From: a virus
Virus record (IMG/VR): IMGVR_UViG_3300046777_002716
Location: 1 to 64,000 of that record
Reading direction: 5' to 3' (one strand)
DNA length: 64,000 nucleotides
Below the pieces are notes generated by a model. That model was not told the origin of the DNA and ran no database searches. It worked only from the letters and a program-made list of their open reading frames with translations. This document shows positions 8,880 through 62,829 of the stretch, in pieces (within the stretch, counting starts at the first letter, position 1; each line of letters starts with the position of its first letter). The position numbers and the translations under genes are program-made.

Positions 8880-8906
8880 GTAATTATACAAACTTTAAGT
8901 TTGCAA

Positions 8907-8979: not shown

Positions 8980-8983
8980 ATAG

Positions 8984-9056: not shown

Positions 9057-9080
9057 AGTGTTAGGTTTTCAAGGTTCGAA

Positions 9081-9098: not shown

Positions 9099-9102
9099 TC
9101 TT

Positions 9103-9131
9103 AGAATAACACCAAACCCAGTCTGGGTCAA
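9103..9131 (-). promoter_or_regulatory. Sigma-70-like promoter (TTGACC/TATTCT)
   Basis: TTGACC (9126-9131), 17 bp, TATTCT (9103-9108) on the minus strand. It has a sister promoter at 11609-11637 with the same boxes and the same 5' hairpin. Confidence 0.7.
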
Positions 9132-9140
9132 GTGGGTTGT

Positions 9141-9158
9141 GCCAGTTTGGGAACTGGC
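9141..9158. repeat. Palindrome between tRNA-Leu(GAG) and a promoter
   Basis: GCCAGTT and AACTGGC arms with a TGGG loop. It is a near copy of the 4339-4360 palindrome and lies 2 bp after the tRNA 3' end and 9 bp before the -35 box. Confidence 0.65.
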
Positions 9159-9160
9159 GA

Positions 9161-9234
9161 TGTCCGTGAGAGGATTCGAACCTCCAACACCTACCCCCTC
9201 AAGGTAGTGCCTCTTCCAGTTGGGCTACACGGAC
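9161..9234 (-). tRNA. tRNA-Leu(GAG)
   Basis: A 74-nt tRNA with acceptor GTCCGTG/CACGGAC, anticodon loop TTGAGGG in a CTACC/GGTAG stem and T-loop TTCGAAT. The variable region is short for leucine. Confidence 0.88.
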
Positions 9235-9237
9235 GAG

Positions 9238-9309
9238 TTCCAGAACTAGGATTCGAACCTAGACAAACACAGTCAAAGTGTGTTGACCTGCCAGTTAGTC
9301 GATTCTGGA
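9238..9309 (-). tRNA. tRNA-Gln(TTG)
   Basis: A 72-nt cloverleaf with acceptor TCCAGAA/TTCTGGA, anticodon loop CTTTGAC and T-loop TTCGAAT. Confidence 0.92.
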
Positions 9310-9328
9310 TTGAAATGGGATTACCCCA

Positions 9329-9658
9329 TTAGTAATATGAAAATGATGCAGAAGTAGCAGTAGCAGTGTCTGTAGCATCATCATCATCTTGATGTTTACG
9401 ATTTTTAAAATACATAAACAAAGGTGATTTTTCGGTTGGAACTAGTACATCAGACCAAAAAGATTCTCCTGACGAACATTGATAAAGAACATCACCCTCA
9501 TAAGGAATCATAGCAACAGCATTGCAAGAATTGTCTTTAATGTAATTATATTCTTTATAATATACTGGACGATTTTTTGCTGCTTGCATAGCAAACACTG
9601 GTTCACTGATTCCAAAAATAATCAAAAACAGAAAAAATAATTTAATGATAAATTTCAT
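9329..9658 (-). CDS. Small secreted protein inside the tRNA array
   Basis: I start this 109-residue protein at the ATG at 9656-9658; a TTG two codons upstream is less likely. Residues 1-23 form a signal peptide (K-F-I-I-K-L then a leucine/phenylalanine core, ending V-F-A). The mature part has a cysteine pair, an aspartate run (about residues 90-94) and a serine/threonine-rich tail. No family is recognised. It interrupts the tRNA array between tRNA-Cys and tRNA-Gln. Confidence 0.65.
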   Translation of the reverse strand: MKFIIKLFFLFLIIFGISEPVFAMQAAKNRPVYYKEYNYIKDNSCNAVAMIPYEGDVLYQCSSGESFWSDVLVPTEKSPLFMYFKNRKHQDDDDATDTATATSASFSYY

Positions 9659-9678
9659 AATCAATTGTAGTTTGTTTA

Positions 9679-9696
9679 TTATCTCAAAAGAGATAA
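9679..9696. repeat. Hairpin after tRNA-Cys
   Basis: Perfect 7-nt arms TTATCTC and GAGATAA with a 4-nt loop, one base beyond the tRNA-Cys 3' end. It may end or trim the tRNA precursor. Confidence 0.55.
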
Positions 9697-9697
9697 G

Positions 9698-9773
9698 AGT
9701 TCAGGGTGGGATTTGAACCCACGGTGAAAGAAGTTTTGCAGACTTCCGCATTCGACCACTCTGCCACCTGAAC
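9698..9773 (-). tRNA. tRNA-Cys(GCA)
   Basis: A 76-nt tRNA with acceptor GTTCAGG/CCTGAAC, anticodon loop CTGCAAA, T-loop TTCAAAT and U73, the cysteine discriminator. Confidence 0.92.
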
Positions 9774-9776
9774 ATA

Positions 9777-9849
9777 TGGGTCTGGTGGGGTTTGAACCCA
9801 CAACTTTTCGGTTAAGAGCCGACTACTCTACCAATTGAGTTACAGACCC
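9777..9849 (-). tRNA. tRNA-Lys(CTT)
   Basis: A 73-nt cloverleaf with acceptor GGGTCTG/CAGACCC and anticodon loop CTCTTAA. It is a close relative of Lys(TTT) at 11400 and probably arose from it by duplication. Confidence 0.9.
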
Positions 9850-9852
9850 AAG

Positions 9853-9924
9853 AGCCCTTAGTGAGAATCAAACTCACGACCTCATTCTTACCAAGAATGC
9901 GTTCTATCACTGAACTATAAGGGC
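9853..9924 (-). tRNA. tRNA-Thr(GGT)
   Basis: A 72-nt cloverleaf with acceptor GCCCTTA/TAAGGGC, anticodon loop TTGGTAA and an unusual T-loop TTTGATT. Confidence 0.9.
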
Positions 9925-9926
9925 GG

Positions 9927-9998
9927 GGTGCCATACGAGATTTGAACTCGTCTACCCAGTTTCACAAACTGGTTCCTTAACCACTAGGATAATGGCAC
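9927..9998 (-). tRNA. tRNA-His(GTG)
   Basis: A 72-nt cloverleaf with acceptor GTGCCAT/ATGGCAC, anticodon loop TTGTGAA and C73, as histidine needs. The -1 position is T in the DNA, so G-1 would have to be added or retained by other means. Confidence 0.92.
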
Positions 9999-9999
9999 A

Positions 10000-10073
10000 T
10001 GGCAGTAGATGGATTTGAACCACCGACCATAGGAATATGAGACCCGTGCTCTACCAAACTGAGCTATACTGCC
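10000..10073 (-). tRNA. tRNA with CAT anticodon (Met or Ile2)
   Basis: Acceptor GGCAGTA/TACTGCC and T-arm are regular. The anticodon loop CTCATAT sits on an irregular stem. It could be an elongator Met tRNA or an isoleucine tRNA whose C34 becomes lysidine; sequence alone does not decide. Confidence 0.8.
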
Positions 10074-10076
10074 AAA

Positions 10077-10161
10077 CGGAGAGTAGAGGATTCGAACCTC
10101 TGGTGCTGTTACACACAAGACCTTTCCAAGATCTCACCATAAACCACTCGGACAACTCTCC
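10077..10161 (-). tRNA. tRNA-Ser(GGA)
   Basis: An 85-nt class II tRNA with acceptor GGAGAGT/ACTCTCC, anticodon loop TTGGAAA, a long variable arm and G73. Confidence 0.92.
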
Positions 10162-10165
10162 AAGG

Positions 10166-10254
10166 CGGAAGTGGTTGGATTCGAACCAACGGTGCCGATT
10201 ACTCGACACGGAATCTTAGCAGGATTCTGCGATAAGCCTCTCTGCCACACTTCC
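10166..10254 (-). tRNA. tRNA-Ser(GCT)
   Basis: An 89-nt class II tRNA with acceptor GGAAGTG/CACTTCC, anticodon loop CTGCTAA, a long variable arm and G73. Confidence 0.92.
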
Positions 10255-10257
10255 AAG

Positions 10258-10350
10258 TTGATAAGGGCACCTGTCCGAATTTAAAGTGCGCTTGGGTCGT
10301 TTAATCCACCGCCGTCACACTAATGTTTGGTGGCGATGGACCCTTATCAA
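10258..10350 (-). ncRNA. Structured RNA candidate, 93 nt, closed by a 10-bp stem
   Basis: TTGATAAGGG (10258-10267) pairs perfectly with CCCTTATCAA (10341-10350). Inside, TCCA/CGCC pairs with GGCG/TGGA, and a GCAC/GTGC hairpin follows. There is no ORF and no T-loop. It lies between tRNA-Ser(GCT) and tRNA-Ile, in the way stable RNAs C and D lie in the T4 tRNA cluster. Function unknown. Confidence 0.55.
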
Positions 10351-10364
10351 ATCCCCGAAGGGAA

Positions 10365-10436
10365 TTGGAACGGTGAGATTTGAACTCACGACTTCTGCGT
10401 TATCAGCACAGCACTCTACCACTGAGTTACATTCCA
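10365..10436 (-). tRNA. tRNA-Ile(GAT)
   Basis: A 72-nt cloverleaf with acceptor TGGAATG/CGTTCCA, anticodon loop CTGATAA and T-loop TTCAAAT. Confidence 0.92.
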
Positions 10437-10441
10437 TCGAA

Positions 10442-10554
10442 GTAAGAGACACTAGTATCATCTTACCTGTTTCAGTTTTCGGACTGAAAAACCTATCACT
10501 AACCAACCTAAGTTTCATAACGGAGGAAGTGAATCTCCGTGACCATAAAGGTCA
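10442..10554 (-). ncRNA. Four consecutive hairpins between tRNA-Ile and tRNA-Phe
   Basis: This 113-nt spacer contains GTAAGA/TCTTAC (10442-10466), TTTCAGT/ACTGAAA (10470-10489), CGGAG/CTCCG (10521-10539) and TGACC/GGTCA (10540-10554). No start codon frame or tRNA is present. It may be a non-coding RNA or a processed spacer. Confidence 0.4.
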
Positions 10555-10556
10555 AG

Positions 10557-10630
10557 TGGGAACACACAGAATTGAACTGTGACCTCATGTTCTTCAGACA
10601 TACGTGCCGACCAACCTACACCATGTTCCC
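10557..10630 (-). tRNA. tRNA-Phe(GAA)
   Basis: A 74-nt cloverleaf with acceptor GGGAACA/TGTTCCC, anticodon loop CTGAAGA and T-loop TTCAATT. Confidence 0.9.
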
Positions 10631-10636
10631 AAAGTT

Positions 10637-10711
10637 TGGAAATTCAGGAATCGAACCTGTCGGGCAGTAAGGGCGATCAACTCCCCACTTTCCTGTGTTC
10701 CACACATTTCC
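10637..10711 (-). tRNA. tRNA-like gene, isotype undetermined
   Basis: The acceptor GGAAATG/AATTTCC and T-arm ACAGG-TTCGATT-CCTG are good, and the length (75 nt) is normal. The D-arm is a tight GTGT/ACAC hairpin without the usual GG loop. The anticodon arm (GGGG...GCCC) gives no 7-nt loop with U33 and a purine at 37; TGA or GAT are the nearest readings. It is a decayed tRNA or a tRNA mimic. Confidence 0.6.
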
Positions 10712-10714
10712 AAG

Positions 10715-10788
10715 TCGGAATGACAGGATTCGAACCTGCGACATCTCGCTCCCAAAGCGAGTGCTCTACCAAACTGAGCTACATTCCG
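10715..10788 (-). tRNA. tRNA-Pro(TGG), second copy
   Basis: A 74-nt cloverleaf with acceptor CGGAATG/CATTCCG (C1:G72), anticodon loop TTTGGGA in a perfect CTCGC/GCGAG stem and T-loop TTCGAAT. Confidence 0.92.
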
Positions 10789-10865
10789 TGGTCTGAGAGG
10801 CAGGATTTGAACCTGCGACCTGAGCGTTCCAAACACCCAGCTCTACCAAACTGAGCTACTCCCAG
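10789..10865 (-). tRNA. tRNA-Pro(TGG), third copy, with encoded CCA
   Basis: Acceptor CTGGGAG/CTCTCAG keeps C1:G72, followed by A73 and a genomic CCA, the only encoded CCA among these tRNAs. The anticodon loop TTTGGAA has A37 instead of the G37 expected for proline, so the assignment is a little less certain. Confidence 0.82.
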
Positions 10866-10868
10866 AGG

Positions 10869-10940
10869 TATTCCTAACGGGATTCGAACCCGTGCTACAA
10901 CCTTGAAAGGGTTGTGACCTAACCGCTAGTCGATAGGAAC
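10869..10940 (-). tRNA. tRNA-Glu(TTC)
   Basis: A 72-nt cloverleaf with acceptor GTTCCTA/TAGGAAT, anticodon loop CTTTCAA in a CAACC/GGTTG stem and T-loop TTCGAAT. Confidence 0.92.
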
Positions 10941-10944
10941 TTGA

Positions 10945-11037
10945 GAGAGGGGTATCCCACACGAAGTTACTTACGGATCACGCTTCGTAGCCTTATGGAT
11001 CCTGCCAGGGTCAATCTGGTGCCTAGGAATCCCTCTC
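10945..11037 (-). ncRNA. Structured RNA candidate, 93 nt, between tRNA-Glu and tRNA-Asp
   Basis: A GAGAGGG/CCCTCTC closing stem encloses a second GGATTCC/GGGATACC helix, a CCAG/CTGG hairpin with a 7-nt loop and an ACGAAG/CTTCGT hairpin. No TTCRA T-loop is found, so it is not a standard tRNA. Its length equals that of the RNA at 10258-10350. Confidence 0.5.
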
Positions 11038-11042
11038 CAATT

Positions 11043-11117
11043 CCAGTTATCGCTACGTCATTTCTTACCTAACTGGCAACCTTCAGAATGACGTGGAGAT
11101 TCGTACTGATGATCTCC
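11043..11117 (-). ncRNA. Hairpin plus predicted H-type pseudoknot beside tRNA-Asp
   Basis: On the minus strand a GGAGAT/ATCTCC hairpin (11117-11095) is followed by two interleaved perfect helices: ACGTCATT (11094-11087) with AATGACGT (11062-11055), and CCAGTTA (11076-11070) with TAACTGG (11049-11043). The 8-bp and 7-bp stems cannot both form without a pseudoknot. No ORF. Unknown function. Confidence 0.55.
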
Positions 11118-11119
11118 AA

Positions 11120-11192
11120 CGACCCTATGGGAATTCGAATCCCAGATTCCTACTAGACAGGTAGGCGTGATAGACCACTTCACTATAGGGCC
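11120..11192 (-). tRNA. tRNA-Asp(GTC)
   Basis: A 73-nt cloverleaf with acceptor GGCCCTA/TAGGGTC, anticodon loop CTGTCTA, T-loop TTCGAAT and G73, the aspartate discriminator. Confidence 0.92.
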
Positions 11193-11196
11193 ATGT

Positions 11197-11266
11197 TCAC
11201 CCGAGCAGGATTCGAACCTGCATCTCTTTCCATGGAAAGACGACATACCATTAGCCGCATCGGATG
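11197..11266 (-). tRNA. tRNA, isotype undetermined (6-nt anticodon loop)
   Basis: Acceptor CATCCGA/TCGGGTG (extendable by two pairs) and T-arm GCAGG-TTCGAAT-CCTGC are regular. The anticodon arm is a perfect palindrome TCTTT-CCATGG-AAAGA, leaving only six loop bases, so CAT, CCA and TCC readings all need a distorted arm. Total length is 70 nt. Confidence 0.65.
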
Positions 11267-11270
11267 AAGG

Positions 11271-11361
11271 TGGGAGAGGAGGGAATCGAACCCCCGATGG
11301 TTCTTATGTAACGGTTTTACAGACCGCCGCCACACATATTGCCGACAGTAGCCACTCTCCC
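11271..11361 (-). tRNA. tRNA-Tyr(GTA)
   Basis: A 91-nt class II tRNA with acceptor GGGAGAG/CTCTCCC, anticodon loop CTGTAAA, a long variable arm and A73, all fitting bacterial tyrosine tRNA. Confidence 0.93.
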
Positions 11362-11399
11362 AAATAGTTTATATTTAACGACCGAACTAAAACGGTCAA

Positions 11400-11471
11400 T
11401 GGGTCTGGTGGGATTTGAACCCACAACTTCCAGGTTAAAAGCCCGTTACTCTACCGTTGAGTTACAGACCC
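11400..11471 (-). tRNA. tRNA-Lys(TTT)
   Basis: A 72-nt cloverleaf with acceptor GGGTCTG/CAGACCC and anticodon loop CTTTTAA. It resembles Lys(CTT) at 9777 over most of its length. Confidence 0.92.
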
Positions 11472-11501
11472 ATAAAAGGTTTAGATTGTCAAGGTGCGAT
11501 T

Positions 11502-11581
11502 GTCACTGGAAGATAATGTTTTATCCAGAGGCCCAAGATAAATCTTAGGACTTAGACTGATGCTAGAAGCAGAGCAGTGAC
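11502..11581 (-). ncRNA. Structured RNA candidate transcribed from the 11609-11637 promoter
   Basis: CAGTGAC (11581-11575, read on the minus strand as GTCACTG) pairs with GTCACTG/CAGTGAC at 11508-11502. The stem encloses an AAGAT/ATCTT hairpin (about 11533-11549) and a GATAA/TTATC hairpin (about 11511-11525). The segment lies between the promoter's 5' hairpin and tRNA-Lys, so it is either a long tRNA leader or a separate RNA. Confidence 0.4.
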
Positions 11582-11586
11582 TTGTG

Positions 11587-11604
11587 GTGGTCTCTCAACC
11601 ACCC
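11587..11604 (-). repeat. Promoter-proximal 5' hairpin, copy 2
   Basis: The same 18 bases as 9081-9098, here with one more stem pair, beginning about 5 bp after the -10 box. Confidence 0.7.
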
Positions 11605-11608
11605 TTTA

Positions 11609-11637
11609 AGAATACCACTCTGTCCGTTAGGGGTCAA
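11609..11637 (-). promoter_or_regulatory. Sigma-70-like promoter (TTGACC/TATTCT), sister of 9103-9131
   Basis: TTGACC (11632-11637), 17 bp, TATTCT (11609-11614) on the minus strand, directed at the structured segment and tRNA-Lys(TTT). Confidence 0.7.
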
Positions 11638-11642
11638 GTGGG

Positions 11643-11668
11643 TTGTGACACTTAGAGAACTGTCACAA
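11643..11668. repeat. Palindrome upstream of the 11609 promoter
   Basis: Eight-base arms TTGTGACA and TGTCACAA with a 10-nt loop. It takes the place that the GTGCCAGTT palindromes hold at 4339 and 9141, between a transcript end and a promoter. Confidence 0.6.
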
Positions 11669-11673
11669 GCAAC

Positions 11674-11707
11674 AAAAAAGGGGAGGAAACTTTTGGTTTC
11701 TCTCCCC
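11674..11707 (-). terminator. Rho-independent terminator
   Basis: On the minus strand GGGGAGAGAAACC and GTTTCCTCCCC form a stem followed by six T. It lies 25 bp after the stop of the 33-codon ORF. Confidence 0.75.
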
Positions 11708-11732
11708 TGTCTTTTTGCTTTTATGGCAGTTA

Positions 11733-11834
11733 CTACATCTGACCTACCATACTCGCAAACAGGGGAGCACCCTCAATATGCCAATAGCGGCAATCGAGAA
11801 TACTAAACTGTTTTGTGGGCATTGGGTAAGACAT
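11733..11834 (-). CDS. Possible micro-protein, 33 residues
   Basis: This short frame (M-S-Y-P-M-P-T-K-Q-F start) sits exactly between its own promoter (11858-11886) and its own terminator (11674-11707). The ATG would be about 17 nt from the transcript start and has no clear ribosome site. It is either a micro-protein or a small RNA that happens to be open; no family is recognised. Confidence 0.35.
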   Translation of the reverse strand: MSYPMPTKQFSILDCRYWHIEGAPLFASMVGQM

Positions 11835-11857
11835 TGTTTTCGACCTAAGTGTTATTA

Positions 11858-11886
11858 TTTATAATACTTTTATTTTTAAAAGTCAA
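11858..11886 (-). promoter_or_regulatory. Sigma-70-like promoter (TTGACT/TATAAA)
   Basis: TTGACT (11881-11886), 17 bp, TATAAA (11858-11863) on the minus strand, immediately after the 3' end of tRNA-Arg. Confidence 0.65.
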
Positions 11887-11887
11887 G

Positions 11888-11962
11888 CGTCTCAGGTTGG
11901 ATTCGAACCAACGACTCACGCTTTAGAAGAGCGTTACTCTAATTCCACTGAGTTACTGAGAC
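11888..11962 (-). tRNA. tRNA-Arg(TCT), second copy
   Basis: A 75-nt cloverleaf with acceptor GTCTCAG/CTGAGAC, anticodon loop CTTCTAA in an ACGCT/AGCGT stem and T-loop TTCGAAT. It differs from Arg(TCT) at 8517 in the acceptor. Confidence 0.92.
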
Positions 11963-15783: not shown

Positions 15784-17190
15784 TCACCTTACATCAGTTA
15801 CATAATACTCAATAAGATCATCCCATGAGTATTCTGAAAGATTATACCCTTCACTTAGAAGAGAATTAACCCACTCTTGAACCTCTTCTGCAAGCAGAGT
15901 ATCATTATAATCATCAATAATATTTTTTACTGCACTTTCATCCATTTCTAACATAATATAATTTGCTTCTTCAATAGTATCCGCATGACCATAATTAATT
16001 AGATATTCAAGAATAATATCATAAGACTCTTTTGTTGTTTCTTTTTCCATTTTTTTCTTTAATCTTTCATTTTCCTTTTCAATATCTGCCTTTACACTTG
16101 CAGCATCAATCTTTGCTTCTGGATTACCAGTTGTTGGTGTTTGATCTTTCTTTTCACCAGGTGCTGGTTTATCTTTCATCTTTGAAATTTCTTCATATCC
16201 AGATTGACCAGGTTTTACCTTAGTAGCAAGATTTGGATGAAGTCTTGCCCACTTTTGCATTGGAGTTTCACCCGAAGTTTCTTTCTTAGATGCTGGTTTA
16301 GGTGCAGTAGATGCTCCTCCACTTGATGATCCTTTAGAACCATCACCACCGCCAGCAGCACCACCAGAAGATCCAGATCCACCACTTGTTGTTAATGAAG
16401 GTAAAGATATATTTGGTAATCTAATTGTCGGTACTTTTATATCACTTGAAGCACTGGTAGTTGATTTTTGTGGTGCTGCTGGTTTAGAATCTTCTCCAGA
16501 ACCTGCTAGTTTTGCACCAGTATATCCAGCAAGAACACCAGTTCCAGCAACTAAAGAACCCTTGGCAAGATCTTTTACACCCTTAACTGCCTTAGAAATT
16601 CTTGCCTGCTTAATTAGTTCAGTTGCCTGTTTTGGAGATAGATTACCAGTTGGAACCTTGATTCCTGCCTTTGATGCTTTAGATCTGGCAAGTCTTTCAA
16701 CTGCCTGAGCAGTTTTGTTAATATTGGGGCTTTTAGCAAATTGTTTACCAATTCTGCGTTCAACACCAGCAGATGCTGCCTTTTCTACACCTTTCTTGAT
16801 TAGATTTTTCGTACCTTTAGCGGCCTTAACTGCAGCACCTGCACCTCTAGCAAGAAGACCTAAGAAACCACCTGCCTCAAGAATTGTAAACTGCTCTTCA
16901 ACAAATTCGTTATGTACAATCTCTTCAGAAATTGTAGTAACATCACTCATTAAATATTTTTCCAGAATATCTAATTCGTCAGAATTTGCTAGAAATTTAA
17001 CAACAGTCTCTGCAGTATAACCCTCAGAGAACATTGATAAAGATACTGAAAGAATAATATCTTCCGCTAAATCTGCTACTTCCTCATCATAGTATTCAGA
17101 TTCTTCATTTAAAAAATCTTGGTCACTAATATGAATTTGCTCATATAAATGACCAAGATCGTTGATAAAATCTTGAGAAATTTTAGACAT
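15784..17190 (-). CDS. Low-complexity late protein with shared helical modules, 468 residues
   Basis: The N-terminus is acidic. The middle has a glycine/alanine hydrophobic stretch (about 103-225), then a serine/glycine/proline-rich part (about 225-350). Near the C-terminus it has a G-H-A-D-T-I-E-E-A-N-Y-I-M segment and a final E-W-V-N-S-L-L-S-E-G-Y / L-S-E-Y-S-W-D-D module. The same modules occur in the proteins at 18522-19631 and 47280-48977. Late-type motif upstream. A virion-associated role is likely but unproved. Confidence 0.6.
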   Translation of the reverse strand: MSKISQDFINDLGHLYEQIHISDQDFLNEESEYYDEEVADLAEDIILSVSLSMFSEGYTAETVVKFLANSDELDILEKYLMSDVTTISEEIVHNEFVEEQFTILEAGGFLGLLARGAGAAVKAAKGTKNLIKKGVEKAASAGVERRIGKQFAKSPNINKTAQAVERLARSKASKAGIKVPTGNLSPKQATELIKQARISKAVKGVKDLAKGSLVAGTGVLAGYTGAKLAGSGEDSKPAAPQKSTTSASSDIKVPTIRLPNISLPSLTTSGGSGSSGGAAGGGDGSKGSSSGGASTAPKPASKKETSGETPMQKWARLHPNLATKVKPGQSGYEEISKMKDKPAPGEKKDQTPTTGNPEAKIDAASVKADIEKENERLKKKMEKETTKESYDIILEYLINYGHADTIEEANYIMLEMDESAVKNIIDDYNDTLLAEEVQEWVNSLLSEGYNLSEYSWDDLIEYYVTDVR

Positions 17191-17232: not shown

Positions 17233-18438
17233 TCACTTGCCAGGTTGGAATTTAACTCCAAGTGCTTTATTTCTTGCAGTATCTGATGCTCTTGCTTTTT
17301 GAAGTGCTTGCTGTGCTTTCGCGGCATCATGCTTTTTGTATGCTCCAGCAAAAAGTGTTCTACCAACTCTTTCTAATGGATTAGAAGATGTTTTAGCAAG
17401 TGATTGAGCACTTGGTCCTGCTTTATAGACTGCTTTACCACCTTTGAATGCAAGATGTCCAGCAGTTGATTGACCGCCTCTTTGAACTACACCAGTCTTA
17501 GCAAGTTGAACTGTTTTTCTTTGTGATCCAGAACCAGTTGACATAAATGCTGGTCCACCTGGTTTTTTCTGACTGAATGTAGTATTGCCACCAATACCTT
17601 TAACTGCAGTTCCTGCTTGACGCTGGCGATTTGCAGTTGCCATTGCTTTTCTTTCTCTTGCATTAGCACCAGCAACAGTATCAAATGCTTTTTCGGCCGC
17701 AGCAGCGCCTGCCAATGCGCCAGCAGTTCCTGTTACAGCACTACCAATTCCACCACCACCAATCGCTCCAGCAGTTCCTCCTAAAAGACCACCAGCAGCA
17801 ACTGTAGCACCTTTTGCCAAAGATCTTGCCCAACCAGATCCCTTTGCTCTCTCATCCGCTGTAGAAAGTGCAGTATCAAGAGCTGCTGATGCTGGTCCAG
17901 CAATTTTACCAATCTTTGCCCATTTTCCTGCTGGTTTTGCTATTTGTGGAGTTTGAGTAGTTGGTGGTTTTCCTTGACTTGGTACATTTCTTACTCTTTC
18001 AGTTCTTCCAGCACCAGAATTCCTATAAGGTCTTGATGATCTACCTGAAGATGTAGAACTTCTTTTTGGTCCAGGAGAAGATTGAGATTGTTGTGGATTT
18101 TGTGGGGGTGGTGGGGGAGGAGTACCACCTCCAGATCCTCCAGAAGGTTGCTTAGGAGGTGTTTGAGTTCCTTTAGGTGGTGGAGGAGGTGTTTGAGTTC
18201 GTGCCTTATTTCCAGATCTTATATCTTCACCAGAAACATTAGTTTTTTTTGCTCTATTCTTTAATAATTCTTCTTTTGCCTTTCTTCTAGCTTCTTGGCG
18301 AGACTTTTCTTCCCAATTGGGATCTCTCCCCATTTTAGCTTCACGACGACGAATCCTTTCCTGCTCTTCGGGATCAATAGTCGCATAATCTTTAACAGAT
18401 TCTCTTGCTTCAATTATAAACTCGTTAAAACTCTTCAT
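17233..18438 (-). CDS. Low-complexity late protein with a T4-type capsid-targeting N-terminus, 401 residues
   Basis: The first residues, M-K-S-F-N-E-F-I-I-E-A, match position by position the start of T4 internal protein III (M-K-T-Y-Q-E-F-I-A-E-A), which targets it to the prohead and is cut by gp21 after E10. A charged helical part (about 20-70), a proline-rich part (80-175) and a glycine/alanine hydrophobic stretch (about 190-265) follow. The rest is basic. It is a candidate internal head protein; a late motif lies upstream. Confidence 0.65.
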   Translation of the reverse strand: MKSFNEFIIEARESVKDYATIDPEEQERIRRREAKMGRDPNWEEKSRQEARRKAKEELLKNRAKKTNVSGEDIRSGNKARTQTPPPPPKGTQTPPKQPSGGSGGGTPPPPPPQNPQQSQSSPGPKRSSTSSGRSSRPYRNSGAGRTERVRNVPSQGKPPTTQTPQIAKPAGKWAKIGKIAGPASAALDTALSTADERAKGSGWARSLAKGATVAAGGLLGGTAGAIGGGGIGSAVTGTAGALAGAAAAEKAFDTVAGANARERKAMATANRQRQAGTAVKGIGGNTTFSQKKPGGPAFMSTGSGSQRKTVQLAKTGVVQRGGQSTAGHLAFKGGKAVYKAGPSAQSLAKTSSNPLERVGRTLFAGAYKKHDAAKAQQALQKARASDTARNKALGVKFQPGK

Positions 18439-18521: not shown

Positions 18522-19631
18522 TTAAACTCCTTCAAGTTTCCCCATTGATCTAGCAGATTGTATTGCTTTATATAATGCCTGACCAGTATTTTGTTTTCCT
18601 GGAATTTCAGCATGTGCAGATCCAGATCTTTTAGCATTCTCTTTATCAAATTTATCTCTAACATAATCAATTCTAGCAGTTTGCTCAATAATATTAGATC
18701 TCCACTCTTCACTCATATTTGCCATAATTTGTAGTGCAGATTCCTCACTATCGGCATAACCTTCATCAAGAAGATGACCTTTGATTACATCAAATACATC
18801 GAAGTCTTGTTGGAGAATTGCTGCTCTAGTTGGAGCAGTTCTTTTTGCAGGTGCTGCAGTTCTAGCAGCAAGATTTGGAGTACTTGGTGCAAATGCTGTT
18901 GCAGTTCTTTGTGCTGCTGTTTGCTGTGCTGCAACTTGACTTGGTGCTTGTCCAGTCTGATACCCGAAAGTTCTTTGCATCAAAGGATTTGGAGTTTTTG
19001 CCTGAGTAGATAGCATTGTTGGAGTACCAATTGATGTTCCAACAGGTTTTACTCCAGTTGCACCAGTATAAGATGTTGTTGATGATGCTGCAGGTTTAGG
19101 TGCTGCTGTAGCACCTCTAGAAGGTTGTGCAGCAGGTCTAGCAGCAGCGGCAGGTCTTTGTTGCGCTTGAGTAGCGGGACGGGCAGCAGGAGCGGCAGAA
19201 GGTCGTGCTGGAGCTGCAGGTCTTGCTCCAGGTCTTTGGAAGATTGGTGACATTCCTGGTTGTACTGGTCTACCATTAATTTGGAATCCACCCTTCCCAA
19301 CAGAAAGACCTCTTTGTGGGGCAGCGGGTCTTGCTCCAGGTCTTTGGAAGATTGGTGACATTCTGGTTTGTCCAGATTGAACTGGTCTGCCACCAATTTG
19401 AAATCCACCAGGTCCAATGGAAAGACCACTTTGTGGTGCCTCATTCAAATAGTGCTCATACATCTCTTCCCAGGTATATTCACTTAAATCGTGACCCTCT
19501 CCAACAAGTTGATTTACCCAGTTTTCAAAATCTTCTTTGATTTGCTCTTCGGTGATTTCTTCTTGTGGTGAATAAACTGAAGCGTATGCCTCCATCAAAT
19601 CACTTACCTGGTGCGATGTAATTCTTTCCAT
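18522..19631 (-). CDS. Low-complexity late protein with shared helical modules, 369 residues
   Basis: The start has L-M-E-A-Y-A-S-V-Y, then F-E-N-W-V-N-Q-L-V-G-E-G-H with L-S-E-Y-T-W-E-E (about 31-54). Two near-identical repeats follow (S-I-G-P-G-G-F-Q-I and S-V-G-K-G-G-F-Q-I, each with I-F-Q-R-P-G-A-R-P), then a long alanine/proline/threonine-rich part. Near residues 285-310 it has E-G-Y-A-D-S-E-E-S-A-L-Q-I-M. It is a late, probably virion-linked protein of unknown role. Confidence 0.6.
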   Translation of the reverse strand: MERITSHQVSDLMEAYASVYSPQEEITEEQIKEDFENWVNQLVGEGHDLSEYTWEEMYEHYLNEAPQSGLSIGPGGFQIGGRPVQSGQTRMSPIFQRPGARPAAPQRGLSVGKGGFQINGRPVQPGMSPIFQRPGARPAAPARPSAAPAARPATQAQQRPAAAARPAAQPSRGATAAPKPAASSTTSYTGATGVKPVGTSIGTPTMLSTQAKTPNPLMQRTFGYQTGQAPSQVAAQQTAAQRTATAFAPSTPNLAARTAAPAKRTAPTRAAILQQDFDVFDVIKGHLLDEGYADSEESALQIMANMSEEWRSNIIEQTARIDYVRDKFDKENAKRSGSAHAEIPGKQNTGQALYKAIQSARSMGKLEGV

Positions 19632-29136: not shown

Positions 29137-30465
29137 TTACTTTTTTCTATGTTTATTTATAAATTCAACACCATACGCTTTTCCGCCAGGTTGTAAATTT
29201 TTAGAATTTGTCTTTACTGCTCCTGGTGTCATCATTGATGCGTATTTAAAATACCCAGTAGTACCTATTAATGTATTTGGTTTATTGGGCATTCTCATAA
29301 TATTATCATTTCTTACTTCAGTATATTCTTTTAAATCTTTAATCCAAGATTTAAACATCATACCGTTTTCTGTAACGCAAATAAGATAGTTGGTACCACG
29401 TCGAATAATTTTTCCAACCAGTCCAGTATTAAGATTTTCAACAATTTCACCAATTCTAAAAAGATTTTCTTGCAAATAATTCTCTCTTAGATTTTGAAAA
29501 TCAAACTTAGGAGCAATCTCCCAAGTATTGTATCCTTCTTGTTGAATTTCCTGAATTCCCATACCTTGTCTAACAAAATAAAAAAGATCTAATGCTTCTT
29601 TATTTTTTAATTCTTTAGGTAATGCAGATCTGAAAGTAACAAAATCACCCTCTGCAGCAGCAAGTCTTAATCTTGAGGCAGAAACACCCTCAATACCTTT
29701 TCCATCTGGGTCACGATCACCAGCAGAAATTACTTCAATAACGTCAAATTGATATAATTGACCGTTATAATTGTTAGAAAGTTTTTCAAATTCTTTTACT
29801 CTATCAGACCCACCAACAATTCTCACATTAGCATATCCATCATTATGCGCTTTTTTAAGCACGTCAAAAATAGTAATATAATTAACATCATTTACAATTC
29901 TTTCACTATGTTCAGGGAACATTTTTCTCATGAAAGAAATTTTCGTATCAGGATCTAGTGGATTCTTTTTCTTGTCTTGAGAACGAGATGGTACAATAAT
30001 ATAATCACCACCATCTTCCATTGCAGAAAGAGCAGCGGTATCCATTAATTGTTGGTGCCCAATTGTTGGAGGATTAAATCTTCCAAATGCAATAGTTAAG
30101 GTTCCTTTAGTTTTTGGTACAGGAGGAAGAGAAAATAAAGGTTCTTCCTGTGGAATTTGTTCTTGTGACAATTGATATTCTTGAGGAATTTCTTCCTGAG
30201 GTAAAGGTTGTTGAACAGGAACTTGCTGTTGAGGTAGGACGGATCCTGAAGGAATGTTTTTTTCAAATTCGCTTTGCTTTGGATCCTTACCCCCAATATT
30301 TTGCCTTTTATTGAAGTATTTCAGTTGTCCACCCACGGTTTTCGCTTCAAATTCACCAGTGGCCCTATTATACCATCCACCGTGACCGTCTCCAACTAAT
30401 CCAAGACGAGCTGCTTGCACTGATGCGGATGTTGCCTCTACAATAAACTGGGGAAATAATTTCAT
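29137..30465 (-). CDS. Nucleotidyltransferase (NMNAT-like) with a capsid-targeting N-terminus, 442 residues
   Basis: The core (about residues 122-300) has the adenylyltransferase signature [11 protein letters not shown] and the matching S-A-S-R-L-R-L motif. The first residues [11 protein letters not shown] fit the T4 internal-protein targeting and gp21 cleavage pattern. A glutamine/proline linker lies between, and the C-terminus has a small beta domain ([11 protein letters not shown]). The enzyme could make NAD or activate another nucleotide, perhaps from within the head. Confidence 0.75.
29154..29161 (-). promoter_or_regulatory. Late promoter motif TATAAATA
   Basis: An exact late motif 35 bp upstream of the 498-residue gene; it lies inside the last codons of the nucleotidyltransferase gene. 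Confidence 0.65.
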
Positions 30466-30533
30466 TATTACTTATACTATCAGAAATATTTTAAAATAAT
30501 TCTTATCTATTTATTGTTATTTTAATTATCTAA

Positions 30534-57088: not shown

Positions 57089-58489
57089 TCACATTAGGTT
57101 TGCAACCTTTACTCTTCTGTAGTAAACGTTGGCGTTGGTGGTTAGAGCACCTTGACCTTGTGCAGCGCCTTCTGCGAATGGGTTTGCAACTAGACCATAT
57201 CTGGTCTTAAATCCAATCTTAGGCTGGAAGCTGTTCTCACCAACCGCACGTACCATCTGTAGAGGTACATATGGGCAGTAGAATAGACCTGCGTCATAAG
57301 GTGAAGAACCCTTATAACCAACAACGTAGAACTGGTTAGCAGATACGTTAGCAGAATAAGGATCGATATAAACCTTATACTTGCCCTGAAGAACACCTGC
57401 GAAGGTGTTACCAGTGTCATCTACCTGGAGGTTTGCGTTGAGTGCAGGGGTGTAATCAAGAACACCTGCCATGGTGAGTGCAGAAGCAACGTCAGCAGAG
57501 CAGAGGATCATGTTACCCTTTCCTCTACGAGTTTGCTGTGCGATAGCGTTAGCATCGCGCTCGATTTGGAAGATTAGACCCTTGAACTTCTCAACAGACC
57601 AACGACCGTTGGAGTCAACGTCGAGGTCGAAAGTACCAGCGGTAGCGGTATTTACTTGAGCACCAGGCTTAGCAACCTTGTAGATGGTACGGATGATTTC
57701 GCGGTTGATCTCAGCAAGAATCTCAGTTGAGAGAATGTTTGCGAGTTCCGCTTCAGCATTCAGACCGTGGATTGCCTTGAGGTCCTGAGCAAGCTCAAGT
57801 GAGTACTCAGCCTTTAGGGCACGTGACTTGGCGGTAACGGTGACTTTCTCGATTGAGAATGCCATCTGGTTGAATGCACCAGATCCACTACCATCAAGAC
57901 CTTCTGCGTCAGCAGTATTCATGCCTTCACCAGCATTATATGCTAGTTGATTTGCAGCAGAAGCATCTAGGATAGATGGGTTAGTACCACCTTGGGCGGT
58001 TGTACCCATACCAACAGCAGCATTGGTGAATCCTGCGGTTAGGGTGCGGCCAGCGTTTTGACCAGAGAATGCGGAATCTACTTCGTTGTAGAAGGTCTCA
58101 TTTCCGCTCTGGTTGTCGTAACGTGAGCGCATTGCGAAGATTAGTCCAGTAGGACCGTTCATTGGTTGAACGCCACACAGATCGTAAGCGATCAGGTTAG
58201 GCATTGAACGACGAATAAGGCTGATTAGAACAGGATCGAAACCTGCAGTAGGACCAGCGTTGAAACCTTGAGCACTACCACCGAAACCAGCAGCACCTGC
58301 AGTTGAAGCAGTGAAGTTGGTTGGGGTCTCATAGAGGAACTCGCGGGCTTCGCGTAGTTCTCTCTCTTGGTTTTCGAGCAGGATAGCGGTTACAGATCTA
58401 CGGTGTGAATCTTTGATCTGATCTAGTCCTTGATAGTCAAGGATAGGAGCCCACTTCTCCTGCAGGTATTCGGTATTGAACATCTGCAT
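57089..58489 (-). CDS. 23: Major capsid protein, T4 gp23-like
   Basis: The 466-residue precursor begins with a charged propeptide, a T-A-S-T-A-G-A-A-G-F-G-G-S-A arm (about 60-73) and the D-P-V-L-I-S-L-I-R-R-S-M-P capsid motif. In T4 the propeptide is removed by gp21. GC content and codon use are raised, as expected for a highly made protein. GAGG lies about 10 nt before the first ATG. Gp22 and gp21 are upstream. Confidence 0.97.
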   Translation of the reverse strand: MQMFNTEYLQEKWAPILDYQGLDQIKDSHRRSVTAILLENQERELREAREFLYETPTNFTASTAGAAGFGGSAQGFNAGPTAGFDPVLISLIRRSMPNLIAYDLCGVQPMNGPTGLIFAMRSRYDNQSGNETFYNEVDSAFSGQNAGRTLTAGFTNAAVGMGTTAQGGTNPSILDASAANQLAYNAGEGMNTADAEGLDGSGSGAFNQMAFSIEKVTVTAKSRALKAEYSLELAQDLKAIHGLNAEAELANILSTEILAEINREIIRTIYKVAKPGAQVNTATAGTFDLDVDSNGRWSVEKFKGLIFQIERDANAIAQQTRRGKGNMILCSADVASALTMAGVLDYTPALNANLQVDDTGNTFAGVLQGKYKVYIDPYSANVSANQFYVVGYKGSSPYDAGLFYCPYVPLQMVRAVGENSFQPKIGFKTRYGLVANPFAEGAAQGQGALTTNANVYYRRVKVANLM

Positions 58490-58539: not shown

Positions 58540-59700
58540 TCACTTTTTGGCGACTCTGCCAAGAGTCTGAAGATATGCTTCCATCATTGGTGATACTGAT
58601 TCTTGATAAGAATCATTACCTATAGTTGCTTCTTCGGATAAATTCTCAGAGTCATCTCTTTGAGTACCAGTATTTGCTGGGAAGTATGATTCCCTTAGAG
58701 TTACTAGTTTCTCACGATAGTTCTCTTCACAATCAAACTCAACATTTTCCGCAAGAGAAGCGAGTTTGTCTTTCTGAGAAAGTGCTAGACCCTCAGCGAC
58801 ATCTGCAAAAATTACATCAGCAACTGACTCTGCTAATCTTCTATTTAGAGCAACATTTCTTTCGATTTGCTCGTTGAGTTTTTCTTCCATTTCATCAAGT
58901 TTATCTACCATACTCTCGATTACATCATATCTATCTTCAGGGATTGAAACATAATGATCTTCAAAAAGACTCTTCATTCCTTGTAGGAATGATTCGGTCA
59001 TTTCGGTCTTAAGACCGTGCTCAACTGCGAGTGCATTTTCAGAAATCCACTCATCAGCAACATACTCAAGATAAGCATCTACACGCTCAGTGAGTTCTTG
59101 CTTAATGAACTCAACTTCTTCGACAAGTGCTTGCTCATAGGTCTCTTGAAGTTGCTCTTTGATTTCAACAACTTTTGACTTAATAGCAGCTTCGAAAATA
59201 GTGCGTGCTTTTTCTTGGAATTCTTCAGAAAGTTCTTCACCAGCAAGAAGAGCATTAACATCTTCTTCGATGGAGAATTCTTCTTCAACTTTTTCTTCTT
59301 TATCTTTTTTAGAAGACTTTTTCTTATCTTCTTCTTCCTCGTCTTCCTCTTCATCTTCTTCATTATGAGAAGCTTCGGAAACCACTTCTTCGCCGTCTTC
59401 TAGTTCTTCTTCATCAACTACAAGATCTTCACCCTCTTCTTCAGTTTCTTCTTTAACTGCAGCGGCTTTGGCATTTACTACATCTCTAACTTGTGCTAAA
59501 GTTGCAGCAGGATCTTTTAGTTTTGCGGAATCATCATCTGGACGATAATTTTCTGGAGTAGGTCCACCTAGATCTTCCCAAGCACCAGTTTGACCGGGAG
59601 TTGCAACTCCTGATGCATTACCTGATTTGATTGGTTCGGCAGGTGCAGCCCCTTTGGTTACTACGTTTTCCATTTCTTGTAAATTTCTACCAACGGACAT
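58540..59700 (-). CDS. 22: Prohead scaffold, T4 gp22-like
   Basis: The 386-residue protein is strongly acidic, with glutamate/aspartate runs at about 85-145 and then long helices, as in the core protein that shapes the prohead and is later degraded by gp21. T4 gp22 is shorter (269). It lies between gp21 and gp23, and a late motif is upstream. Confidence 0.85.
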   Translation of the reverse strand: MSVGRNLQEMENVVTKGAAPAEPIKSGNASGVATPGQTGAWEDLGGPTPENYRPDDDSAKLKDPAATLAQVRDVVNAKAAAVKEETEEEGEDLVVDEEELEDGEEVVSEASHNEEDEEEDEEEEDKKKSSKKDKEEKVEEEFSIEEDVNALLAGEELSEEFQEKARTIFEAAIKSKVVEIKEQLQETYEQALVEEVEFIKQELTERVDAYLEYVADEWISENALAVEHGLKTEMTESFLQGMKSLFEDHYVSIPEDRYDVIESMVDKLDEMEEKLNEQIERNVALNRRLAESVADVIFADVAEGLALSQKDKLASLAENVEFDCEENYREKLVTLRESYFPANTGTQRDDSENLSEEATIGNDSYQESVSPMMEAYLQTLGRVAKK

Positions 59701-59739: not shown

Positions 59740-60390
59740 TTAAAGATTTGAAAGAAATTCTTGGAACAATTCAACCTTATGTTCCTGTAGTTTTCTTTCA
59801 TCTACTAGAGTATTAATTCTACGCTTTGTAGATTCTGCAAGTTTTTCGCGGAGAATTCCTCCTTCCCAAACCCACTCTTTACCTTCCATAATTCCTTGAA
59901 CAAATGCATCAGGTGCTGAAGGATCGGCAACGATATCTGCTGCTGTTGCAAGCATGAAATCTTCACCAACAATTTTATGACCTTCGTTGGTCATTTTGAG
60001 TGAACCAACACCACGAGAAGAAACGCCAAGACAAACGCCTTCGGAAATAAGAGATTTTGCAATCTTACCCATAGGGGTCTCAAGAAGTTGTGCCTTACCA
60101 ATAAAATTATTACCTTTTTGTTCTAAGGAAACAATTTTGTGAGAAACTCTGTCTAGATTTACTGTTGGACCATCTGGATGTCCAAGTTCTCCAAGAGCAC
60201 GACCCTTATTGACGAAAGATTCGTTATATCTCTTTACCTCACGGGCAAGAGTTTGAATAGGATACATTCTTCCATTACGGTTGCAAATGTCTCCTTGAAG
60301 GAAAACACCTTCAATATACATTTTCTTTTCACTACCCTTTCCTTCGGTAATGAATTTAACTTGTGAGACTTCTTCGGTGATGAGTTTCAT
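59740..60390 (-). CDS. 21: Prohead core protease, T4 gp21-like
   Basis: The 216-residue serine protease has G-E-L-G-H-P-D-G (histidine, about 67-74) and L-G-V-S-S-R-G-V-G-S (serine, about 122-131), the herpes-protease-like signature of gp21. It cuts head proteins after I/L-x-E during maturation and would cut the candidate targeting peptides found here. Confidence 0.93.
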   Translation of the reverse strand: MKLITEEVSQVKFITEGKGSEKKMYIEGVFLQGDICNRNGRMYPIQTLAREVKRYNESFVNKGRALGELGHPDGPTVNLDRVSHKIVSLEQKGNNFIGKAQLLETPMGKIAKSLISEGVCLGVSSRGVGSLKMTNEGHKIVGEDFMLATAADIVADPSAPDAFVQGIMEGKEWVWEGGILREKLAESTKRRINTLVDERKLQEHKVELFQEFLSNL

Positions 60391-61137: not shown

Positions 61138-61145
61138 TATTTATA
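61138..61145 (-). promoter_or_regulatory. Late promoter motif TATAAATA
   Basis: An exact late motif 25 bp upstream of the gp67-like gene. It overlaps the end of gene 20. Confidence 0.7.
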
Positions 61146-62829
61146 TTTTCCCACCTTTGGGTTTTGGAATTTCTACCATTGAGGTATCTATTGTTGGTTC
61201 AATAGGAGTTTCACCATTTGCACCTTGTTCTATTCCTGCTGCCTGATCTGGTGGTATTTCTCCTTCTGGTGGTAATGGATTACCATTTTCGTCTACTGGA
61301 GCATTAGGATCAGGAAGAATACCTTTTGCAATTTCATCTTCTATTTGCATATCAATATCAATAATTTCAGCATCAGTTTGACGAAGAATCTTTTTGCGTA
61401 CATACTCTGTTGAATAATATTTTCCAATATATGGTTCAATAGTTGTTGCAAGAGTAAGTCTATTTGTAAGAAGTTCTGCTTCTTTTAGTTCGGCAAAATG
61501 ATTATCATATAGGAAATCATATTGTATATGATCTGAAATTTTTTCCCAATCTTCTGGAGAAACTACATTTTTTAAGAGTAGTTGTGTGCGAAGCATATCA
61601 TTGAATAGATTTGCAAAACGCTTTCTTAAACGTCCAACAAATTTGGAGAACATCAATTCGTCTCTGAGAATTTCTGATGAACGCCCCAGATTAAATCCAT
61701 CTCCTCCACCAGCAATTCTAGATTCGGGAACACCTAGTGCTCTATAAAGTTTCTTTTGAAAGTATTCAATATCCGAAAGTTCTCCAAGATTTTGACCACC
61801 TGGTAAAGTTGTAATTTCTGTTCCTCTTCCACCTTCTCTGCGAGGCAACCAGAAATCTTCAAGCATACTCATGAATTTTCTATCATCACGAACTTCGCCG
61901 GTGTTTGCGTCATATACAAGTTTATTTCTATAGCGAGACATAACCTCTTTGAGGTACTGTTCTGCTTTTACTTTAGGAAGATTACCTACATCAATATAAA
62001 AAATACGACGCTCTGGTGCTCTTGATAATCTATAAATTACCAAAGAATCCTCAATCATTCTAAGTTGGTTGAGGGCTTTGATTGCTTTATGTAGATATGA
62101 TAGTACAGTTCCTTTATTTCTATCTACCAATCCAGAAGAACAATATGTTATGGAATCTTTTGCAATCTTTACTCCCTTTTTAGAACCACCAGTAACTGTT
62201 CCTGATGGAAAATTTGGTGTGGGGGTATAAATGTAGAACTCTTCAATATCTGGAAAACTTTGATCCTCATCTGTAGAGGAAAAGTTTATATTTGAGTAAT
62301 TATTTGCACCATTCTTTTTCTTTTCTTGACGCACATGCTTCAGTTTCATGGGATCAATATATCTAAGTTCTTTGATCCCTTCTTCTGGTTTCTTTTGGTC
62401 GATTACTTTCAGATAAAAAAGTCTACCATCAATATACCAATTCCTGAAAATTTCGTGACACTTTTTATCAAAATCCATCATTTCTTTGATGGATTTGAAT
62501 TCGTCTCTTATTACGTCCTTTAATCTATCGCTTGCATTTAAATTAGATAACTCAATTTCAACTGGTGAATCATATAGATCACTAACAATTGCTTCGTTAA
62601 CGACGTTTTCGATAGCATTATCACACTCTGGATGGAGTGCCATTTCACGATATCTACGAATTAAATCGTATTCAGTCCTGTAAACACCTTCAATATCTAC
62701 ATATTGACCATAAAATCCAGATTGGATAAAATAATCAACCCCGTCCTCATTATTAGGAGGAACGGGGGAAACTATAGATTTGGACTTTTTATCATTATCT
62801 TCAATCGAAAAACCAAAAAGTTTCGCCAT
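61141..62829 (-). CDS. 20: Portal vertex protein, T4 gp20-like
   Basis: The 562-residue protein (T4: 524) has the portal patterns F-I-Q-S-G-F-Y-G, Y-R-E-M-A-L-H-P-E-C-D-N-A-I and L-P-G-G-Q-N-L-G-E-L-S-D. It forms the dodecameric ring at the packaging vertex. The C-terminus is proline and acid rich. Confidence 0.96.
   Translation of the reverse strand: MAKLFGFSIEDNDKKSKSIVSPVPPNNEDGVDYFIQSGFYGQYVDIEGVYRTEYDLIRRYREMALHPECDNAIENVVNEAIVSDLYDSPVEIELSNLNASDRLKDVIRDEFKSIKEMMDFDKKCHEIFRNWYIDGRLFYLKVIDQKKPEEGIKELRYIDPMKLKHVRQEKKKNGANNYSNINFSSTDEDQSFPDIEEFYIYTPTPNFPSGTVTGGSKKGVKIAKDSITYCSSGLVDRNKGTVLSYLHKAIKALNQLRMIEDSLVIYRLSRAPERRIFYIDVGNLPKVKAEQYLKEVMSRYRNKLVYDANTGEVRDDRKFMSMLEDFWLPRREGGRGTEITTLPGGQNLGELSDIEYFQKKLYRALGVPESRIAGGGDGFNLGRSSEILRDELMFSKFVGRLRKRFANLFNDMLRTQLLLKNVVSPEDWEKISDHIQYDFLYDNHFAELKEAELLTNRLTLATTIEPYIGKYYSTEYVRKKILRQTDAEIIDIDMQIEDEIAKGILPDPNAPVDENGNPLPPEGEIPPDQAAGIEQGANGETPIEPTIDTSMVEIPKPKGGKI

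What the first reader, a model, noticed from the sequence alone, without database searches (positions are those of the whole stretch)
29137..30465. A nucleotidyltransferase with a T4-type capsid-targeting peptide
Seen: the N-terminus [11 protein letters not shown] matches T4 internal protein III (M-K-T-Y-Q-E-F-I-A-E-A), including the gp21 cut site after E10, and gp21 is encoded here. The enzyme core has [11 protein letters not shown]. Inferred: an NMNAT-like enzyme packed in the head and perhaps injected, able to act on host NAD metabolism at once.
Basis: partly seen in the sequence, partly recalled or inferred. Interest (0 to 1): 0.75.

Follow-up and report, generated by a model that had tools for sequence, protein, structure and literature searches.

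The report
Cyanophage enzyme tagged for head packaging
A nucleotide-handling enzyme in a T4-like phage related to those of photosynthetic bacteria begins with the same kind of short 'put me in the virus head' peptide that phage T4 uses, which would explain why relatives of this enzyme turn up in purified virus particles.

Summary
ORF 29137-30465(-), 442 aa, starts [11 protein letters not shown], like T4 IPII/IPIII (MKTYQEFIAEA); gp20-gp23 are in the window. The motif hits 9 of 21,959 start codons in codon-shuffled phage genomes, yet is present in 80 of 80 fetched close relatives, 80 of 80 S-SM1-type and 80 of 80 P-RSM6-type relatives (50 of these one residue shorter), and absent in 80 of 80 S-RSM4-type relatives. 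The conserved positions include the four that T4 IPIII mutants assign to targeting and cutting. Published proteomes put tagged homologues in S-SM1, S-SCSM1 and S-CREM2 virions; the untagged S-PM2 homologue is reported as not detected. In S-CREM2 the tag also starts virion proteins labelled SAM hydrolase and kinase. Capsid targeting by a T4-type propeptide is therefore very likely; cutting at E10 and injection are inferred. 'NMNAT' is only a lead: the core is a HIGH-superfamily nucleotidyltransferase, but curated NMNAT models are not passed and phosphopantetheine adenylyltransferase fits the fold equally well. Virion NMNAT-like proteins and their possible injection are already in print; I found no paper that links them to this tag. 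A second, very basic tagged protein lies at 17233-18438.

The parts
29137..30465 (-). CDS, 442 aa: capsid-targeting peptide + linker + HIGH-superfamily nucleotidyltransferase core + C-terminal beta-rich domain
30433..30465 (-). codons 1-11, [11 protein letters not shown]: capsid-targeting propeptide with predicted gp21 cut after E10
   Evidence: the cut is inferred
29551..30108 (-). codons 120-305: nucleotidyltransferase core
30055..30087 (-). codons 127-137 [11 protein letters not shown], TxGH active-site signature
   Evidence: F127-T134, G136, H137 invariant in the 42 aligned proteins; P-SSM2 and P-RSM6 have PPHAGH
29326..29460 (-). codons 336-380: C-terminal beta-rich domain; a separate gene in S-RSM4
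30508..30514 (-). ATAAATA, late-promoter-like, 49 nt upstream of the start
   Evidence: consensus recalled; weak support
59740..60390 (-). gp21 prohead protease
58540..59700 (-). gp22 scaffold (prohead core)
57089..58489 (-). gp23 major capsid protein
61141..62829 (-). gp20 portal
17233..18438 (-). second tagged CDS, MKSFNEFIIEA..., 401 aa, mature pI 11.1, possible T4 IP-like internal protein

Best explanation
The protein is an internal head protein of a T4-like cyanophage. Its first ten residues are a capsid-targeting sequence of the T4 IPIII kind: they bind the gp22-based core of the growing prohead (inferred), gp21 cuts after E10 during maturation (inferred), and the mature enzyme stays in the head and most likely enters the cell with the DNA (inferred). 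There it adenylylates (or cytidylylates) a small phosphorylated substrate at once, before phage genes are expressed; NMN or NaMN is the leading candidate. Shown: the tag, its conservation pattern, gp21 and gp22 in the same genome, and (by others) the presence of tagged homologues in purified virions.
For: Tag present and conserved: 80 of 80 window-like and 80 of 80 S-SM1-like loci, 80 of 80 P-RSM6-like loci when a one-residue-shorter form is allowed; each set is the best 80 that the scan kept (of 529, 126 and 99 confirmed). In 42 distinct N-termini from the first two sets, positions 2, 7 and 10 never vary, 4 is F or Y, 8 is I, L or V and 11 is A in 41, while 3, 5, 6 and 9 are free (the start was picked with the motif, but one search shows the same at the aligned start of the first set). 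T4 IPIII mutants map targeting to 4 and 7 and processing to 8 and 10 (PMC9026906, passage). Virion detection of tagged homologues: S-SM1 (PMC3037559; tag), S-SCSM1 (PMC9602691; tag), S-CREM2 (PMC10665884; tag). In S-CREM2, 6 of 219 annotated CDS carry the motif and 5 of the 6 are among the 52 virion proteins (Fisher one-sided 0.003, with the motif set after seeing those N-termini). In S-SM1 the only annotated start with the motif is this gene. The S-PM2 homologue has no tag and is named among proteins encoded by S-PM2 but not detected in its virion. The active-site signature is intact.
Against: No N-terminal peptide data for any homologue. MS detection may be carry-over, as the S-CREM2 and S-SCSM1 authors say; S-CREM2 detection rests on 3 unique peptides. 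The S-CREM1 paper has NMNAT in a figure legend, but its passage on the 14 virion proteins does not mention it. S-RSM4-type homologues lack the tag in 80 of 80 (best 80 of 554). The motif is an imperfect predictor: SSCSM1_30 and S-CREM2 gp175 have it but are not marked or listed as virion proteins, and T4 IPI and Alt, known internal proteins, are missed. Curated NMNAT models are not passed.
Confidence: 0.82

Rival explanations
1. The N-terminal helix is a general docking or oligomerisation element and the enzyme works in the cell during infection; its presence in virion preparations is carry-over of an abundant protein.
For: Authors of two proteomes raise carry-over. The model shows a helix at residues 4-20. 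S-RSM4-type enzymes do without the tag.
Against: The pattern matches the T4 targeting and cutting positions, with A after E10. The same kind of peptide starts four other virion proteins of S-CREM2: gp6 (SAM hydrolase), gp13, gp14 (kinase), gp136. T4 ipII and ipIII carry it.
Confidence: 0.12
2. The protein is packaged as described, but its substrate is not NMN/NaMN: it is a phosphopantetheine, FMN or other adenylyl/cytidylyltransferase.
For: PPAT (Z 14.1) and NadD (Z 13.3) tie as best structural matches; FAD synthetase also matches; Pfam and PHROG names say cytidylyltransferase. No NAPRTase in the 101,897-base record.
Against: Best equivalog hits, though weak, are NadR (E 0.0013) and NadD (0.012) before PPAT (0.093); the best Foldseek hits are NaMN adenylyltransferases.
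Confidence: 0.5
3. A structural (non-catalytic) role: the enzyme fold is retained only as a core or internal head protein.
For: T4-GC190 is a core gene of the 16 cyanophages of PMC3037559 (passages), which fits a constant need.
Against: [10 protein letters not shown] and R267 are invariant in 42 of 42 aligned proteins, which fits catalysis.
Confidence: 0.08

Closest known systems
T4 internal proteins IPII and IPIII (capsid-targeting sequence, gp21-processed)
   Same: N-terminal MKxYxEFIAEA-type peptide in the same register; gp21 and gp22 present
   Different: The cargo here is a 48.6-kDa (calculated) nucleotidyltransferase with a long linker, not a small basic protein
T4 Alt (packaged, injected ADP-ribosyltransferase)
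   Same: An enzyme carried in the head of a T4-like phage (PMC9026906, passage)
   Different: Alt starts MELITELFDEDT and is not found by the motif used here; different chemistry
Cyanophage virion 'cytidylyltransferase'/NMNAT (T4-GC190; S-SM1, S-SCSM1, S-CREM2)
   Same: Same family: S-SCSM1 matches at 45% over the full length and S-SM1 at 47% from residue 120 on; all three are tagged
   Different: The published passages I read name no packaging signal
Phage NadM / NadR NMN adenylyltransferases
   Same: HIGH-superfamily fold and (H/T)xGH signature
   Different: No Nudix or kinase domain found by Pfam; curated cut-offs not reached; no NadV-like gene in the record searched

Membership tests
T4-type CTS-bearing internal head protein | N-terminal ~10-residue propeptide with targeting residues at 4 and 7 and cutting residues at 8 and 10 | tested here: met
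   rules from PMC9026906 (passage)
T4-type CTS-bearing internal head protein | T4-type prohead core and protease (gp22, gp21) encoded | tested here: met
T4-type CTS-bearing internal head protein | Propeptide removed by gp21 in the mature virion | not testable with these tools
   No N-terminal peptide data found; the site E10|A11 is compatible
T4-type CTS-bearing internal head protein | Located inside the mature head | not testable with these tools
   Tagged homologues detected in purified virions by others; location within the virion not shown
NMN adenylyltransferase | HIGH-superfamily nucleotidyltransferase fold | tested here: met
   PF01467 26.4 bits, cut-off 21; Foldseek and VIA-align
NMN adenylyltransferase | (H/T)xGH and SxS/T..R active-site signatures (recalled) | tested here: met
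   T134, G136, H137, R267 invariant; S262, A263, S264 at 90% or more in 42 aligned proteins
NMN adenylyltransferase | Passes a curated NMNAT equivalog model | tested here: not met
   NadR model 18 bits against cut-off 341; NadD 15.7 against 112
NMN adenylyltransferase | Makes NAD or NaAD from NMN or NaMN | not testable with these tools
   no assay

The most novel reading that the evidence does not exclude
T4-like cyanophages use a short, transferable N-terminal peptide, [FY]xxF[ILV]xE|A just after the start, as a shipping label for a variable set of injected proteins: the NMNAT-like enzyme in most lineages looked at, and in single phages a SAM hydrolase, a protein kinase, possibly a protein labelled Cas9-like, and very basic proteins. 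Reading the label in a genome would predict the injected payload.
Probability: 0.5. Interest if true: 0.75.

Novelty: new member of a known kind. Interest (0 to 1): 0.6.

Why it matters
Published cyanophage virion proteomes list enzymes that could be cargo or contamination. A conserved T4-type targeting peptide on these proteins offers a way to tell the two apart from sequence, would extend a mechanism worked out in T4 to cyanophages, and makes injection of a nucleotide-metabolism enzyme directly testable.

Tried and rejected
Considered and rejected: chance match; wrong start codon (the tag is at the annotated start in the S-SM1, P-SSM2, S-CREM2 and S-SCSM1 records); defence-system similarity (none in PADLOC for the four proteins given). 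NadV was sought and not found in the 101,897-base record, which may be a fragment. A profile search of solved structures by sequence gave nothing. The fold search does not separate NMNAT from PPAT. The late-promoter-like site is weak support: such sites stand within 90 nt upstream of 8 of 13 genes that I took as head, tail or neighbouring and 3 of 12 others, in a hand-picked list in which several gene names are my own guesses. A scan with the S-CREM2 protein found one relative. DUF6321 (L301) was followed by one scan and one phage search and not analysed further.

Results against the reading: 0 of 80 S-RSM4-type homologues tagged; two annotated motif carriers not listed or marked as virion proteins (S-CREM2 gp175, SSCSM1_30); Fisher for S-SCSM1 alone 0.29 (with the paper's 45 of 282; I count 48 CDS marked as virion protein in the record); T4 IPI and Alt not found by the motif; the four homologues I looked at from outside the cyanophage and Methylophilales phages (K64-1, XbC2, 30-3, Cr30) untagged. 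Rows dropped: of 33 relatives of the second tagged protein, 27 show the tag, 4 are cut at the 5' end, L190 shows none and L213 is a variant.

Full report
What is there. The ORF at 29137-30465 on the minus strand is 442 aa long and begins [17 protein letters not shown]. Pfam finds a cytidylyltransferase-like domain at residues 125-228 (E 8.9e-6, above the curated cut-off) and PHROGs places residues 116-423 in phrog_395 'cytidyltransferase' (E 9e-100). The window comes from a T4-like relative of cyanophages: 534 of 50,697 phage records hold a relative of this protein, 462 of them Synechococcus, Prochlorococcus or 'Cyanophage' records, and 161 cover at least 80% of it; the closest is S-SRM01 at 78%. 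gp21 (59740-60390), gp22, gp23 and gp20 are in the window. The virus record is 101,897 bases long.

The tag. In the T4 record ipII and ipIII start MKTYQEFIAEA. I defined a motif, M..[FYLWM]..[FWY][ILMVF].E, after seeing the N-termini of the S-CREM2 virion proteins and used it unchanged from then on; two variants were used later and are named where they occur. It hits 2 of 1199 start codons in the window: this gene and 17233-18438. In the whole record a third hit is a 54-residue ORF. In T4 it hits 4 of 3030 start codons: ipII, ipIII, the small gene 61.1 and a TTG inside a longer frame. In codon-shuffled genomes it hits 9 of 21,959. IPI and Alt are missed, so the motif is specific but not complete.

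Conservation. The 80 close relatives that the scan kept (best of 529) carry it in 80 of 80, as do the 80 kept S-SM1-type relatives (best of 126), in which the distance from tag to core is 83-85 residues against 113-140. The S-CREM2 protein starts MKNFSSFLTEA and its one relative MKNFGAFFEEA. In 42 distinct N-termini from 116 distinct proteins of the first two sets, positions 2, 7 and 10 are invariant, 4 is F or Y, 8 is I, L or V and 11 is A in 41 of 42, while 3, 5, 6 and 9 vary (starts picked with the motif, but one search shows the same at the aligned starts of the first set). A review of T4 head work reports that IPIII residues 4 and 7 matter for targeting and 8 and 10 for processing (PMC9026906, passages). 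A variant pattern that also asks for the residue after E10 and restricts position 2, run over 1.94 Mb of fetched loci, gave 269 hits among 24,693 ATG/GTG starts: 243 are this enzyme, 25 the second tagged protein and one a DUF6321 protein. These loci were fetched because they hold the first two families, so this shows specificity, not frequency.

Where the tag is missing. The 80 kept S-RSM4-type homologues (best of 554) lack the tag in 80 of 80; in the 14 rows printed the core follows the start by 11-13 residues. In S-PM2 the annotated enzyme is preceded by part of a DUF6267 domain and has no tag. Homologues from K64-1, XbC2, 30-3 and Cr30, the four I looked at outside the cyanophage and Methylophilales phages, are untagged. 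The Methylophilales phage Melnitz-3 protein starts MKKFSEIIEA, similar but out of register.

Virion evidence from papers. S-SM1: the putative cytidylyltransferase T4-GC190, a cyanophage core protein, was detected in the purified virion, and the text lists it among proteins encoded in S-PM2 but not detected in the S-PM2 virion (PMC3037559, passages). The S-SM1 and S-PM2 records label their genes T4-LIKE GC 190. S-SCSM1: NMNAT (ORF91) was among 45 virion proteins, and the paper cites an NMNAT in S-CBWM1 virions (PMC9602691, passages; record note); it starts MKSFLQFLKEA. S-CREM2: cytidylyltransferase ORF154 was among 52 virion proteins, with 3 unique peptides (PMC10665884, sections 18 and 19 and passages). 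Both later papers suggest carriage, entry into the cell and an effect on NAD, and both warn of carry-over. S-CREM1: 14 virion proteins were found, and the passage describing them does not mention NMNAT, which a figure legend names (PMC9964418, passages).

The tag and other virion proteins. In S-CREM2, 6 of 219 annotated CDS carry the motif at their start and 5 of the 6 are among the 52 detected: gp6 (SAM hydrolase), gp13, gp14 (kinase), gp136 and gp154 (this enzyme); gp175 is not. One-sided Fisher is 0.003, but the motif was set after seeing those N-termini. The virion protein gp12, labelled Cas9-like by its authors (no Pfam match), has RFASFMAEA at residues 18-26, behind a CTG codon that is not among the starts I scanned. 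None of the 24 proteins listed as structural has the motif at its start. In S-SCSM1, scanned after the motif was fixed, two annotated starts carry it: NMNAT, detected, and SSCSM1_30, not marked as a virion protein (Fisher 0.29). In S-SM1 this enzyme is the only annotated start with it. The numbers are small; agreement over three phages is the point, not the p-value.

The enzyme. In an alignment of the window protein with 41 of the 160 window-like and S-SM1-like loci, FGRFNPPT, G136, H137 and R267 are invariant; P-SSM2 and P-RSM6 have PPHAGH, the other accepted form of the signature (recalled). The model has mean pLDDT 66 overall, block means of 76-90 over residues 121-250 and 261-300, a helix at residues 4-20 and low confidence at about 54-109. 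Foldseek's best matches are NaMN adenylyltransferases (9rpm E 8e-7, 8aih E 1.8e-6), with FAD synthetase and PPAT further down. The second aligner puts PPAT (Z 14.1, rmsd 3.0, 155 aligned) and NadD (Z 13.3, rmsd 3.4, 165 aligned) within one unit. NCBIfam ranks NadR and NadD above PPAT, all far under their cut-offs. I therefore call it a HIGH-superfamily nucleotidyltransferase, NMNAT-like, and do not file it as an NMNAT.

Mechanism. Most likely: late expression (an ATAAATA lies 49 nt upstream, weak support), binding of the peptide to the prohead core, gp21 cutting after E10, retention of the mature enzyme (calculated 48.6 kDa, pI 8.6) beside the DNA, entry into the cell at infection, and immediate nucleotide chemistry. 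Only the sequence features and, by others, the virion presence of relatives are shown. If the product is NAD, instant supply could offset NAD-consuming defences or feed NAD-using phage enzymes; a survey of viral NAD systems discusses packaged ADP-ribosyltransferases and Nudix proteins and describes phage NMN adenylyltransferases (PMC9503650, passages). This last step is speculation.

What is new. Virion NMNAT-like enzymes and their possible injection are in print. I found no paper linking them to a capsid-targeting sequence: 'capsid targeting' with 'cyanophage' returns one paper, the T4 review, and neither the 20 of 478 papers listed nor the 11 shows such a link in title or abstract start; subscription papers and supplements were not searched.

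Noticed in passing
window 17233-18438 (-): Second tagged ORF (MKSFNEFIIEA), 401 aa, mature pI 11.1, no Pfam match; among phage records only S-SRM01 (2 records) matches; 27 of 33 viral-contig relatives show the tag.
   Followed up: partly
L082 3837-13331 (S-CREM2 gp6, gp12-gp15): Minus-strand virion-detected proteins with tag-like N-termini: gp6 (Pfam SAM lyase domain), gp13 and gp14 (labelled kinase) match the motif; gp12 (labelled Cas9-like) has a similar peptide at 18-26 and gp15 starts MNFSEFNES.
   Followed up: partly
L083 1809-2783; L100 26-1228; L097 601-1773: DUF6267 lies directly upstream of the enzyme (S-SM1, S-RSM4) or, in part, in front of it in one ORF (S-PM2). S-RSM4's copy has TKWDGAPS, which resembles the KxDG motif of ligase-type nucleotidyltransferases (recalled); TKWDGAP occurs in 71 of 80 S-RSM4-type, 24 of 80 P-RSM6-type, 16 of 80 S-SM1-type and 1 of 80 window-like loci, whose flanks differ in length.
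   Followed up: partly
L301 3061-3426: In an S-RSM4-type locus, a 121-aa protein with a DUF6321 domain starts MKTYTEFIAEA, almost identical to the T4 peptide.
   Followed up: partly
T4 NC_000866 18966-19130 (gene 61.1): T4 hypothetical protein 61.1 starts MKTFKEFIKED, close to the IP propeptides.
   Followed up: no
window 15784-17190 and 18522-19631 (-): Two ORFs flanking the second tagged gene share LxxEGxxLSEYxW stretches and hold several possible gp21 cut sites; both match phrog_3708 (E 7e-5 and 1e-17).
   Followed up: no
window residues 324-381 of the enzyme (phrog_4808): The PHROG label 'ribonucleotide reductase alpha subunit' sits on the enzyme's C-terminal domain and on the separate S-RSM4 gene; it looks like a mis-annotation.
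   Followed up: no
window 4361-11962: 32 tRNA genes, a large set for a phage.
   Followed up: no
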